Shown piece by piece: positions 31,501-34,263 of a DNA stretch of 64,000 nt. A model generated the notes under the pieces. The model saw only the letters and a program-made list of their open reading frames with translations. It was not told where the DNA came from and did not search any database. The stretch is taken from the NCBI GenBank assembly GCA_009760855.2, contig WPIO01000101.1, positions 594,001-658,000 on the forward strand, written 5' to 3'. This stretch comes from Cristatella mucedo (lineage: Eukaryota > Bryozoa > Phylactolaemata > Cristatellidae). Made by a program: the position numbers and the translations under genes. Within the stretch, counting starts at the first letter, position 1. Every line of letters starts with the position of its first letter.

Positions 31501-33889
31501 CCGGCCCACTGGCCGGCAGCACAGCCGGTCAGCACTCCGGTCAAAACTGTACTGTCAGAGCGAGGGTGCTCCTCTGTCTGTCTCTTCCGGCTGAGCTCGG
31601 CGGCTGTTTTCGGTTCCTCATTCATTCTCGCTATTTAAAAGGTTCCTTACTTCAACTACACCGAAGCGTTCGCCGAGGCCAGGCACAGCGGCGGTAGCAA
31701 GCTGGTGCACTCCATCGTGCTCTGGGGTGCCCTGGACGACCAGAGCTGCTGAGGTTCCGCGCGCACTCTTCGAGACACGGTGCTCGAGAGTGCGCGCGTC
31801 ATGGACGTGCTGCGAGATAACTTCGTCTCCACTTGGGCTCTGGTTGCTGACCTCAAGGTGACATCTGGCTGCACGCCCTGCACATCTATCTGCCCAGAGG
31901 CCAGCGCGCATGCTGTTGCTGCTGTCGCCGATGAGTGAGGCTGCAATGAGCTCATTCGCATGCATGCTAACGCAGGCCTACCAAGACCTTGAATCGAGTC
32001 ACCCGGAGCTGGCGAAGATCTCCCGACACGCTCTGTCCCTCTACACATTCCCCGTGGAGCTGATGGTATCGCTGGCCAACGGAACCGTCATCCACCACAC
32101 CAATCTCAACAGCATGATGCAAGAGATCAGCCCGCCAACGGAAATGCCGCCGTAAGCTGCCGTCACTCCGGTCGCTACTCGCCACTGCTCCGACGGCTCC
32201 TTCCCTCTGCTAGCCCCTGCCCCTTAGCCGTTGCCCCACACTTGCCCTGACCGCTCATACCCACTCAGCCGGGGAAGGCAGGCGGCACCGAGCGTGCAGC
32301 CTCGTCCCCTCTCTGGTCTCTCCTCGGTGTCTGACCGCTTTCGATTTGACTGTCATCAGCGCAGAGTGGCCATAGCAAGACGACTCGTCGTTGCACGAAG
32401 TGACGTAGCTTTCGGTCGTGGCAAAACTTCTTTCGCCATCTTCCAGAGACGTTACCGGTGCAGCATGTCCTCTTTGGCCGGTTTCTTGACAGAATTTGTC
32501 ATACATTTATTTAATGCTTGATCCCTGACTGATGTACGTGGCACTTGCCATAGCGCTTCCAGAGTTTATGATTCGTCTTTGATGATCGTTTAAATGTGCC
32601 TTTAACCAGCCTCCAATTCTGTGGAGCCGGAACTTACTTTCAGCTGTCTGCTTGCATGGTGCCCAAAGCATAGAACTCACTGACCGACACTGACGACATG
32701 GAGTGCATACTCTGTCCTCGTGAATCGTCAGTTGTGCACTTACATGTGCAGATTTGTGTGCATGCTATCACCAACTATTCGATATGTTTTCTTTCCAGTT
32801 AATGTAAAAGTGCCTAGAAAGAGATTCAACTTTGGTTGCTATACATTTGTTGTATTAGTAGTGTTATTACAATTGTGAGCTCCAGCAAATTTGCCTTAAC
32901 CTTAACCCGAAGGTAAGCTTCGGTATGAGAAAGCTCAGTGTGAGAAATAATAACCCATCATGGTCGATTGTTTATTGAGTTCGAAATAATTTCGTACTGT
33001 GGAGCCTTTTTCTGCTTACGGGCACTTCGTGGTACAGCACCCAAGGATGCAGACTTGAAAGGGAAAGTATTAGCTTGGTACTAACTGGTATCAAGTCACA
33101 GCAGCAGGCTACCCCATTCAAGATCTGTCAACAGATGTCATCGAGTTACTAGTTGCATTGAAACGAATGCCTCACCCTTAAGATTCTTGTGGCTGCTTCC
33201 TTGTGTACTGTAAACAAAAGTATTTCAATGTGGTCACTAACTGTAGCTAGGGTACATATTACTGGTCATGCACGTGCTAGGGAGGCCTTGTCTGTAAGGA
33301 CCTATAGTTTCAAAATGTAGAGCGACCAAATGTCGTCTGCTGTGGGACTGAGTGCCGACAAAGACGGTCCCTTCGTGAAGGCAACCGTCCTGCATCCAAC
33401 GGTGCTCTACCGATTGAGCCATCAAGACTACTTTTCGATCGACGTTCTGCACATCCTTGGTTTTACCTTTTGAAATGGACGCGGGTGACGAATGGTTTGA
33501 AATGGTTGCGAATTTATTGCCGAGCTACAACCATCGGGCCTGCCGGGTGGCTTCGATTGCCTGCATGCCCATACTTTCGGCCAACCGTTTTACTTGCCAT
33601 TCGTTGATTAATGGGGTGTTCAGTGAGAAGGCAGGCTTGTCATTACATTAACCACGCCTCAATGATAAATGCACTGGCATTTCCTCGTTGTAGAGCTGAA
33701 CATCCCGCAGTGGGCGCCTACATCGCCTTCCTCGAGGCTGGAATGAAGGCAGCAGCCGTGCACTCGGCAGACACAGAGGCCACACTATTGCAGCAGCCGG
33801 CTGCCGACGACGTCACTGACAGCGGAGGTTCACCATCGTCATCGGCCGGCGTCGCAGGCAATGTAGTTGACAGCCACTCCGAGCTGTAG
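25277..33889 (+). CDS. SELENON: Selenoprotein N (Sec-containing ER membrane glycoprotein)
   Basis: SELENON is an ER glycoprotein involved in calcium handling through SERCA and in muscle redox control. Exons: 25277-25597, 25793-25918, 27512-28293, 29768-29919, 30059-30267, 31642-31857, 31976-32151, 33694-33889; 2178 bp, 725 residues (human 590). A membrane anchor lies at about 72-93, an EF-hand loop ([12 protein letters not shown]) at 126-137 and NRYYPPR before the conserved core. The core reads [37 protein letters not shown] and [16 protein letters not shown]. UGA 31750-31752 encodes Sec567: homology continues straight through it ([19 protein letters not shown]) and all downstream joins keep frame. 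A conserved glycosylation site (NGT) follows YTFPVELM. An Ala-rich insert in exon 3 explains much of the extra length. The C-terminus is HSEL. It is complete within the window and tail to tail with TDRD9. Confidence 0.95.
25793..25918 (+). CDS. SELENON: SELENON exon 2: EF-hand
   Basis: Acceptor ccttcgccgtag, donor AAG/GTCAGA; 42 codons, phase 0 at both ends. It encodes [20 protein letters not shown]: a complete 12-residue EF loop with acidic ligands at positions 1, 5, 9 and 12. Human SELENON has an EF-hand at the same place. Confidence 0.9.
25986..26134. repeat. (GA)n microsatellite in SELENON intron 2
   Basis: About 149 bp of GA with a few interruptions, 68 bp after the exon 2 donor. Purine on the sense strand. 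Confidence 0.95.
26280..26560 (-). mobile_element. LINE-related fragment, minus
   Basis: gggacggcac, gatgctg/gaagctgaag and aaggaggtcggat resemble the minus copy at 12240-12330. Degraded; boundaries uncertain. Confidence 0.4.
26860..27210 (+). mobile_element. Second LINE family, C-terminal fragment and 3' end, plus
   Basis: An open frame encodes [20 protein letters not shown], the conserved end block of LINE ORF2 proteins. The 3' end reads gactttgtggagttactgac, then ggagatacatt and an (attaca)n tail, unlike the (att)n-tailed family. It lies in SELENON intron 2. Confidence 0.8.
27327..27346. repeat. Poly(C) run
   Basis: About 20 C in SELENON intron 2, 165 bp before exon 3. Confidence 0.9.
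27512..28293 (+). CDS. SELENON: SELENON exon 3: conserved N-terminal half of core, with Ala-rich insert
   Basis: Acceptor catttgtcttag; donor TTCAG/GTAGGC; 782 bp, ends two bases into an Arg codon. It opens [20 protein letters not shown] and ends with [27 protein letters not shown] and EVVF. Between about 27910 and 28100 it codes an Ala-rich low-complexity segment absent from human SELENON. Confidence 0.9.
28378..28570 (-). mobile_element. tRNA-derived SINE, family 2 (minus)
   Basis: Head gtgagccgtgatagcac, B box ggttcgattcc and the common body, antisense within SELENON intron 3. Confidence 0.8.
29049..29463. repeat. (CT)n tract of about 415 bp in SELENON intron 3
   Basis: Nearly pure CT with rare GT, AT and CC interruptions after 29187. 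It gives long false Ser-Leu frames on the plus strand and Arg-Glu frames on the minus strand. Pyrimidine on the sense strand of SELENON. Confidence 0.97.
29768..29919 (+). CDS. SELENON: SELENON exon 4
   Basis: Acceptor ctggctgcag, donor GTAAGA; 152 bp. It encodes [20 protein letters not shown] and [12 protein letters not shown], close to human IHAEFQLSEPP and RLFVPN. Confidence 0.95.
30059..30267 (+). CDS. SELENON: SELENON exon 5
   Basis: Acceptor gacgttgcag; donor AAAAAG/GTTGGC, a weak donor. 209 bp, ends in phase 0 at HFYPFKK. It includes DMEWMNSP and [13 protein letters not shown]. Confidence 0.93.
30284..30312. repeat. Short (CT)n tract after the exon 5 donor
   Basis: About 29 bp of CT beginning 17 nt beyond the exon 5 boundary. 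Confidence 0.85.
30937..31184. repeat. (GA)n tract of about 248 bp in SELENON intron 5
   Basis: GA with GACA and GGGA interruptions between about 31008 and 31080. Purine on the sense strand, so it is complementary to the CT tract of intron 3. Confidence 0.97.
31642..31857 (+). CDS. SELENON: SELENON exon 6: selenocysteine exon
   Basis: Acceptor tatttaaaag, donor AAG/GTGACA; 72 codons, phase 0 at both ends. It reads [31 protein letters not shown], then UGA (31750-31752), then [20 protein letters not shown]. The Cys-Sec pair with following Gly is the redox motif of SELENON. There is no other stop in the exon. Confidence 0.95.
31759..31797 (+). promoter_or_regulatory. Selenocysteine redefinition element (stem-loop after UGA)
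   Basis: The 5' arm gcgcgcactcttcgag pairs with the 3' arm ctcgagagtgcgcgc around loop acacggtg: 15 base pairs with one bulged T. The stem begins 6 nt after the UGA. Vertebrate SELENON mRNA is known to carry such an element at this place, where it promotes UGA readthrough. Confidence 0.85.
31976..32151 (+). CDS. SELENON: SELENON exon 7
   Basis: Acceptor tgctaacgcag, donor GTAAGC; 176 bp, ends two bases into a Pro codon. It reads [35 protein letters not shown], matching the FPVEMM and NGTVVHH region of human SELENON. Without splicing it would stop at once at TAA, which overlaps the donor. Confidence 0.93.
32152..33693 (+). other. SELENON intron 7
   Basis: 1.5 kb with a diverged LINE/SINE tail at about 32750-32870 and otherwise anonymous sequence. 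Confidence 0.8.
32750..32870 (+). mobile_element. LINE/SINE 3' tail, plus, diverged
   Basis: aatgtaaaagtgcctagaaagagattcaac, then gctatacatttg and a T-rich end. The body upstream is too degraded to name. Confidence 0.6.
33694..33889 (+). CDS. SELENON: SELENON exon 8: C-terminus
   Basis: Acceptor tcctcgttgtag; stop TAG at 33887-33889. It encodes [18 protein letters not shown], matching the TYMQFLKEGL region of human SELENON, then an Ala/Ser/Asp-rich tail ending DSHSEL. The last four residues look like an ER-retrieval signal variant. Confidence 0.92.
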
Positions 33890-34194
33890 ATTACTCTTGT
33901 CCAAGAGGGCGGCGAATCCCACGCGCACACAAAAGCAGAGCGAATGAAGAGGCTGCAGGCCCCCTCCTGCTCGACTAACGGCGATCGCGAAACGAGTGGC
34001 CACGAAAATGAAAGGACGACCTATTGTTGTTATTAATCGTAGCACGAGAAATGCGGACCGCTGTACTTTGTGCGCCTCTTTTCTGTATGAACGCTTTGCT
34101 TTTTCACTCAACTCTTAACTAGCCCATTCACGGGGTCGCCTTTGCTCACCTTCGTAGCTGGATGCCAGCCTGTCACTCACTTGGCTGGTCGCCT

Positions 34195-34263
34195 GGCGCC
34201 TTAATGAAAAGCAGCTGCCAACGCGCTGCGCAGCGCAGCTGCTGCTTGGAACGTGCTGGCGCC
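34195..34263 (+). promoter_or_regulatory. SECIS element candidate in the SELENON 3' UTR
   Basis: The core has ATGA at 34204-34207, a 12-nt 5' helix strand, AA at 34220-34221, an apical palindrome gcgctgcgcagcgc, a pairing 3' strand (aagcagc with gctgctt) and GGA at 34248-34250. A basal helix can form between ggcgcc 34195-34200 and ggcgcc 34258-34263. Order and spacing fit a eukaryotic SECIS with an extra apical stem (form 2). It starts about 305 nt after the stop. Confidence 0.75.

What the first reader, a model, noticed from the sequence alone, without database searches (positions are those of the whole stretch)
31642..34263. Complete selenocysteine recoding kit of SELENON in one invertebrate locus
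The in-frame UGA at 31750-31752 sits in a strongly conserved Cys-Sec-Gly motif and homology runs on through it. A 15-bp stem with an 8-nt loop starts 6 nt later, inside coding sequence. A SECIS-like hairpin with ATGA, AA and GGA in the right order lies about 305 nt after the real stop. An ordinary gene finder would truncate the protein at this UGA. The stem-loop is unusually GC-rich and nearly perfect, which suggests strong selection on RNA structure as well as on the protein.
Basis: partly seen in the sequence, partly recalled or inferred. Interest (0 to 1): 0.78.

Follow-up and report, generated by a model that had tools for sequence, protein, structure and literature searches.

The report
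Animal selenoprotein N gene, recoding hairpins
The finding is a real and essentially textbook animal selenoprotein N gene with its two RNA signals for reading a stop codon as selenocysteine; what is unexpected is that some planctomycete bacteria carry a related gene with the same stop codon and their own recoding hairpin at nearly the same spot.

Summary
Confirmed. The window holds an eight-exon SELENON-like gene (25277-33889, + strand, 725 codons) with an in-frame UGA at 31750-31752. A 16-bp hairpin with one bulge (31758-31798) starts 5-6 nt after it; 1 of 3000 synonymous recodings is as stable. A form-2 SECIS-like hairpin (34195-34263) lies about 305 nt after the TAG; 1 of 500 shuffled 3' UTRs has one as good, though Rfam calls none. 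These are the known SELENON parts (SRE, SECIS): a new member of a known kind. Two additions. (1) A second SELENON gene in the same genome has an intron one base after the UGA; its hairpin keeps 10 of 11 lower-stem pairs, two by compensated swaps that change amino acids. (2) Planctomycetes carry SELENON homologues: 18 of 19 loci covering the site have TGA, including the 15 closest. Twelve of those 15 share a covarying SECIS-like hairpin centred +26.5 nt; the animal main stems centre at +26. This makes the published idea that SREs descend from bacterial SECIS testable in SELENON. It is suggestive only: the animal lower stem has no bacterial counterpart and the bacterial model misses the animal hairpins.

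The parts
25277..25597 (+). exon 1 of the SELENON-like gene (start codon chosen by me; hydrophobic segment by eye)
   Evidence: open frame, GT donor; start codon inferred
25793..25918 (+). exon 2, EF-hand-like [13 protein letters not shown]
   Evidence: one search gives only a weak EF-hand match (nucleobindin 1, E 0.97)
27512..28293 (+). exon 3
29768..29919 (+). exon 4 (RIHAEYQL...)
   Evidence: similar stretch in the bacterial loci by eye and in the second animal gene
30059..30267 (+). exon 5
31642..31857 (+). exon 6, holds the UGA and the SRE hairpin
31750..31752 (+). in-frame UGA (selenocysteine, residue 567)
   Evidence: TGA at the aligned site in 18 of 19 bacterial loci that cover it and in the second animal gene
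31758..31798 (+). SRE-like hairpin: 16 bp, one bulged U, 8-nt loop 31775-31782
31976..32151 (+). exon 7
33694..33889 (+). exon 8 with the stop TAG 33887-33889
34195..34263 (+). form-2 SECIS-like hairpin (ATGA 34204-34207, GGAA 34248-34251)
   Evidence: not matched by Rfam

Best explanation
This is an intact animal SELENON gene. Its mRNA carries a form-2 SECIS in the 3' UTR, which should recruit the SECIS-binding protein and the Sec elongation factor with Sec-tRNA, and a stem-loop (SRE) just after the UGA, which should favour Sec insertion over termination. The protein would be an ER redox protein with a Cys-Sec site. Shown here: the open gene, the UGA, both RNA folds beyond their nulls, a tRNA-Sec gene, and compensated pairing in a second SELENON gene. 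Inferred: splicing, readthrough, Sec insertion, location and function of the protein.
For: Gene model with seven GT-AG introns and a single in-frame UGA. Hairpin stability against dinucleotide shuffles and synonymous recodings. SECIS geometry and 1 of 500 shuffles. tRNA-Sec in the genome. Second SELENON gene with the same UGA and the same lower-stem register: 10 of 11 pairs formed, pairs 8-44 and 12-40 by C-G to G-C swaps. Human SRE disease residues G463, R466 and R469 (passage of PMC3541580) fall at +1, +4 and +7 after Sec462; the window has G, R and R there.
Against: No Rfam SECIS match. No solved-structure match for exon 6. No Pfam or NCBIfam family over its cut-off. Weak excess stability of the exon fold as a whole. 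Splice sites and start codon are read from DNA. No vertebrate SELENON sequence could be fetched, so the name rests on the motif, on literature residue positions and on recall.
Confidence: 0.93

Rival explanations
1. On the origin of the hairpin: the SRE is the descendant of a bacterial SECIS. Animals acquired SELENON from a bacterial lineage with its UGA and downstream hairpin in place; SelB recognition was lost, a 3' UTR SECIS took over, and the hairpin stayed on as a helper.
For: Bacterial SELENON homologues: 18 of 19 loci covering the site have TGA there, among them the 15 with E 1.5e-15 or better. The alignment from Sec to the STW motif has no gap. In 12 of those 15 the hairpin has pairs 18-35 to 24-29 (centre +26.5), 98.8% of cells paired, two pairs with compensated changes. 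The window's upper stem uses pairs 19-34, 20-33, 21-32 and 22-31 of that register; its main stem is centred at +26. Most hosts have SelB (15 of 19 over cut-off) and tRNA-Sec (17 of 19 over cut-off, 16 of them at 66 bits or more). In an unrooted tree the animal pair is separated from bacterial group A, together with groups B and C, at 100/99. The general idea was proposed for SPS genes in PMC4561486 (passage).
Against: The animal lower stem has no bacterial counterpart: its 11 pairs are formed in only 0 to 5 of 12 bacterial loci. A covariance model of the 12 hairpins hits neither the window hairpin nor the two (unspliced) copies of the second gene at E up to 10. Three of the 15 closest loci (L019, L022, L023) fold differently. 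The register is partly dictated by the protein: 482 of 1497 synonymous recodings of the window with a stem of 7 or more pairs have a centre within 0.5 nt of +26.5, and 115 of 1230 for the second gene; the bacterial hairpins themselves are not unusually stable (968 of 1500 recodings of L001 and 552 of 1500 of L017 are as stable). The second gene keeps only C19-G34 and a G-U at 22-31 of the upper stem. L001's own host has SelB only as two sub-cut-off fragments and no tRNA-Sec over cut-off. The tree is unrooted, 8 of 14 inner branches are open, and the bacterial sample is one phylum.
Confidence: 0.35
2. On the origin of the hairpin: the SRE and the bacterial hairpin are convergent. Any UGA to be recoded gains from a nearby stem-loop, and shared amino acids around the site steer both to nearly the same place.
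For: The synonymous null shows that the window peptide favours that register; stems and loops differ and the bacterial model misses the animal hairpins.
Against: Two of the six invariant columns of the 17-row alignment, Arg +7 and Leu +11, have codons that pair with each other (20-33, 21-32) in all 12 bacterial hairpins and in the window hairpin, though not in the second gene.
Confidence: 0.55
3. A pseudogene, or a chance stop and chance hairpins.
For: Rfam finds no SECIS; the genome also holds a second SELENON gene.
Against: Clean reading frame over eight exons, both hairpins beyond their nulls, compensated pairing.
Confidence: 0.02

Closest known systems
Vertebrate SELENON (SEPN1) with its selenocysteine redefinition element
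   Same: Sec followed by G at +1 and R at +4 and +7 (positions from a passage of PMC3541580), UGA-proximal stem-loop (passages of PMC8704476), 3' UTR SECIS; that the human stem starts about 6 nt after the UGA is recall of Howard 2005
   Different: Eight coding exons in my model against 13 in human (passage of PMC12839072). From recall only, not measured: the stem here is longer and more GC-rich, and human has Gly where the window has Ala at +3
Bacterial SECIS-like hairpin of planctomycete SELENON homologues (found here)
   Same: Hairpin inside coding sequence, centred 26-26.5 nt after the homologous UGA
   Different: 7-bp stem with GGUC loop, read by SelB (inferred); the animal lower stem is not formed in bacteria and the bacterial model does not hit the animal hairpins
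SRE and HRE of SPS2/SPS1 genes (Mariotti 2015, PMC4561486, passages read)
   Same: UGA-proximal stem-loop, proposed there to derive from bacterial SECIS
   Different: Different gene family; [quoted passage not shown]

Membership tests
SELENON (selenoprotein N) | Sec in a conserved SC-U site with homology continuing past the UGA | tested here: met
   (bacterial homologues and the second gene of the same genome)
SELENON (selenoprotein N) | Direct alignment with a vertebrate SELENON | not testable with these tools
   no vertebrate sequence held; only residue positions from PMC3541580
SELENON (selenoprotein N) | EF-hand and membrane anchor near the N terminus | tested here: inconclusive
   EF-hand-like loop and hydrophobic segment by eye; weak match E 0.97; no Pfam EF-hand
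SRE | Stable stem-loop starting about 6 nt 3' of the UGA | tested here: met
SRE | Pairing conserved by compensation in relatives | tested here: met
   one relative only (second gene): 10 of 11 lower pairs, 12 of all 16, two compensated
SRE | Stimulates UGA readthrough | not testable with these tools
   needs a reporter assay
Eukaryotic SECIS | AUGA / AA / NGAN core with helices of the right spacing | tested here: met
   (pattern written by me from general knowledge)
Eukaryotic SECIS | Match to a curated SECIS model | tested here: not met
Bacterial SECIS | Window hairpin matches the bacterial SELENON hairpin model | tested here: not met
Bacterial SECIS | Hairpin in the bacterial SELENON homologues covaries | tested here: met
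   12 of the 15 closest loci (L019, L022, L023 left out because their hairpin differs): covariation score 0.268, 0 of 500 shuffles; but number of pairs changed on both sides is reached by 39 of 500 and pair types by 500 of 500

The most novel reading that the evidence does not exclude
SELENON, described in 2007 as apparently animal-specific, is a bacterial selenoprotein gene taken up with its UGA and its coding-region SECIS hairpin in place; the SRE grew from that hairpin, keeping its register after the SelB-binding loop decayed and a 3' UTR SECIS took over. It would be a direct molecular link between the bacterial and the eukaryotic way of encoding selenocysteine.
Probability: 0.32. Interest if true: 0.78.

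Novelty: new member of a known kind. Interest (0 to 1): 0.47.

Why it matters
The locus is a clean example of a gene that standard annotation would probably cut at the UGA, and the two SELENON genes of this genome show an RNA stem kept through changes that alter the encoded amino acids. The bacterial homologues with the same UGA and a nearly in-register hairpin make a published idea (SRE from bacterial SECIS) directly testable in SELENON, whose SRE has been studied by mutation.

Tried and rejected
Viral-contig scans with exon 6 and with the family alignment gave no relative; plasmids gave none. The genome-contig scan, which needs one of six exact 8-residue patterns of the animal protein, gave one bacterial locus. 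Solved-structure searches gave nothing for exon 6 and one weak EF-hand match for the whole protein. Rfam gave no SECIS. An AlphaFold job on a bacterial homologue without alignment gave mean pLDDT 49.2 and was not used. Pseudogene and chance readings rejected. The paralogue exon join printed lost one base at the junction; the join used from then on is TGA-G | GT. A SECIS candidate for the second gene (C332:12366788-12366835) is 5.9 kb past the last exon I found and is not claimed.

Literature: the listings of searches showed no paper on a bacterial SELENON. The one paper with both 'selenoprotein N' and 'planctomycetes' (PMC4807772) has selenoprotein N, in the passages shown, only in a cited title. 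Passages only, not whole texts, were seen of PMC3473315, PMC13188914, PMC9599142, PMC8704476, PMC4807772, PMC4561486, PMC3541580, PMC12936836, PMC11227280, PMC9312934, PMC12839072, PMC2375036 and PMC3316567. Howard 2005 and Maiti 2009 are not held; what I say of the 2005 abstract is recall. Supplementary tables (for example S9 of PMC4807772, selenoprotein candidates) could not be read and might list a bacterial SELENON. I have a vague, unverified memory that a bacterial SelN homologue has been mentioned elsewhere.
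Full report
Observation. The gene model has eight coding exons, 25277-33889, seven GT-AG introns and 725 codons before the stop, with the UGA as residue 567 and TAG at 33887-33889. The hairpin has 16 pairs, one bulged U and an 8-nt loop; 1 of 200 dinucleotide shuffles and 1 of 3000 synonymous recodings drawn from the gene's own codon usage are as stable. In the whole exon the excess is weak (z -1.27, 22 of 200). The 3' UTR element has AUGA, AA 12 nt on, and GGAA, with helices on both sides; 1 of 500 shuffles of 33890-34500 has an element as good by my script. 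Rfam did not call it a SECIS, a result against.

Relatives inside the same genome. The window lies in an unnamed 572-Mb genome. A search with the Sec domain found the window locus and a second SELENON gene on C332, with a near-copy on the 62-kb contig C315 that differs by small indels. The second gene reads ILWGSLDDQSC-UGA and then has an intron that starts one base after the UGA codon; the hairpin lies wholly in the next exon, so UGA and hairpin come together only after splicing (splice sites read from DNA). Counting from the first base after the UGA, the lower stem of the window hairpin is pairs 7-45 to 17-35. The second gene forms 10 of these 11 and 12 of all 16 window pairs. Pairs 8-44 and 12-40 are C-G in the window and G-C in the second gene. 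The first swap goes with Ala to Gly at +3 and Arg to Pro at +15; the second is silent at Arg +4 and goes with Ala to Pro at +14. The second gene's hairpin is less extreme: 64 of 3000 synonymous recodings are as stable, and RNAfold puts a small inner stem at +23.5 above the main stem. The genome has a tRNA-Sec gene at 81.5 bits.

Bacterial relatives. A scan of genome contigs (one genome for each of 84,980 prokaryote species, by exact peptide patterns) gave one planctomycete locus with the same UGA (L001; 39 of 100 positions identical). Of 397 sampled genomes of its class 8 matched at E 1e-5, and of 392 sampled genomes of its phylum 13 at E 1e-8, two of them repeats; the query's own genome is in both. 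That is 20 loci in 19 genomes; 19 loci cover the Sec site; 18 have TGA there and one, L009, has Cys by my alignment. The 15 loci with E 1.5e-15 or better all have TGA. They resemble the animal protein upstream of the Sec too, by eye and in the tree alignment of 295 kept columns. SelB is over its cut-off in 15 of the 19 host genomes (not G001, G352, G300, G332) and tRNA-Sec in 17 (not G001, G332), 16 of them at 66 bits or more. The tRNA-Sec cut-off is also passed by 5 of 14 control genomes and SelB's by 2 of 14. The host of the Cys form (G332) passes neither; but L001's host (G001) passes neither either, with SelB in two sub-cut-off fragments. Neither of the two proteins tested (one bacterial) matches an NCBIfam model over its cut-off.

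The bacterial hairpin. In 12 of the 15 closest loci (L019, L022 and L023 were left out because their hairpin differs) the stretch after the UGA aligns without gaps and forms a 7-bp stem around GGUC: 98.8% of cells paired, two pairs with compensated changes, 38-70% paired when the register is slid by 1 to 3. The covariation score beats 500 of 500 shuffles; the number of doubly changed pairs is reached by 39 of 500, and pair types by 500 of 500. By energy it is not unusual: 968 of 1500 recodings of L001 and 552 of 1500 of L017 are as stable. The resemblance to the E. coli fdhF SECIS (AGGUCU) is recalled. Its pairs are 18-35 to 24-29, centre +26.5. From the Sec to the STW motif the animal and bacterial proteins align without a gap. 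The window's upper stem, pairs 19-34 to 22-31, is in that register, and three of its four pairs (G20-C33, A21-U32, G22-C31) are the commonest bacterial pairs; 20-33 and 21-32 join the codons of Arg +7 and Leu +11, two of the six invariant columns.

How far this goes. Against common descent of the two hairpins: the animal lower stem, its main part, is formed at only 0 to 5 of 12 bacterial loci per pair; a covariance model from the 12 loci finds neither animal hairpin at E up to 10, and among the left-out loci finds L023 and L022 weakly (E 0.1 and 0.19) and L019 not at all; 482 of 1497 synonymous recodings of the window with a stem of at least 7 pairs land within 0.5 nt of the same centre, so the peptide alone explains much of the coincidence (115 of 1230 for the second gene); and the second gene keeps only 19-34 and a G-U at 22-31 of the upper stem. 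The tree separates group A from groups B, C and the animal pair at 100/99, but it is unrooted, 8 of 14 inner branches are open, and the second gene's protein in it is partial. If the root lies among the bacteria, the ancestor shared with the animal gene probably had the UGA and the hairpin; if it lies on the animal branch, it need not have.

Known and new. SELENON's SRE is established (passages of PMC8704476, and PMC3541580). That the SELENON SRE resembles, or in SPS genes may derive from, bacterial SECIS is in print (passages of PMC12936836, and PMC4561486). A 2007 survey called SelN apparently specific to animals (passage of PMC2375036). A bacterial SELENON with this UGA and hairpin was not found in my literature searches, and two reviews of prokaryotic selenoproteins show no SELENON under the terms I searched in their main text (PMC13188914; PMC9312934). 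The finding as given is therefore correct and of a known kind; the bacterial link is what deserves follow-up.

Noticed in passing
window 23365-24489 (-): PP2C phosphatase frame (Pfam PP2C, 2.4e-73), head to head with the SELENON gene start at 25277.
   Followed up: partly
window 640-1155 and 7578-8000 (-): Kinase and SH3 exons that may belong to one mixed-lineage-kinase-like gene on the minus strand (the gene name is recall).
   Followed up: partly
window 25987-26135, 29049-29463, 30940-31184: Long GA/CT microsatellites in SELENON introns.
   Followed up: no
window 33875-33886: The predicted protein ends in HSEL, which resembles an ER-retention tail (recall).
   Followed up: no
L013 about 1399-1507 (G000:C332): In the second SELENON gene an intron begins one base after the UGA codon, so the recoding codon and its hairpin lie in different exons.
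   Followed up: partly
L007, L008, L025, L009: More distant planctomycete proteins with TGA (three) or Cys (one) at what I align as the same site; L007, L008 and L025 also fold a stem centred at about +26.5 with another loop. The bacterial model hits L025 (E 0.0014) but not the L007 or L008 site.
   Followed up: partly
G000:C315:54285-54389 (L012): Near-copy of the second SELENON gene with small indels on a short contig, possibly an alternative haplotype.
   Followed up: no
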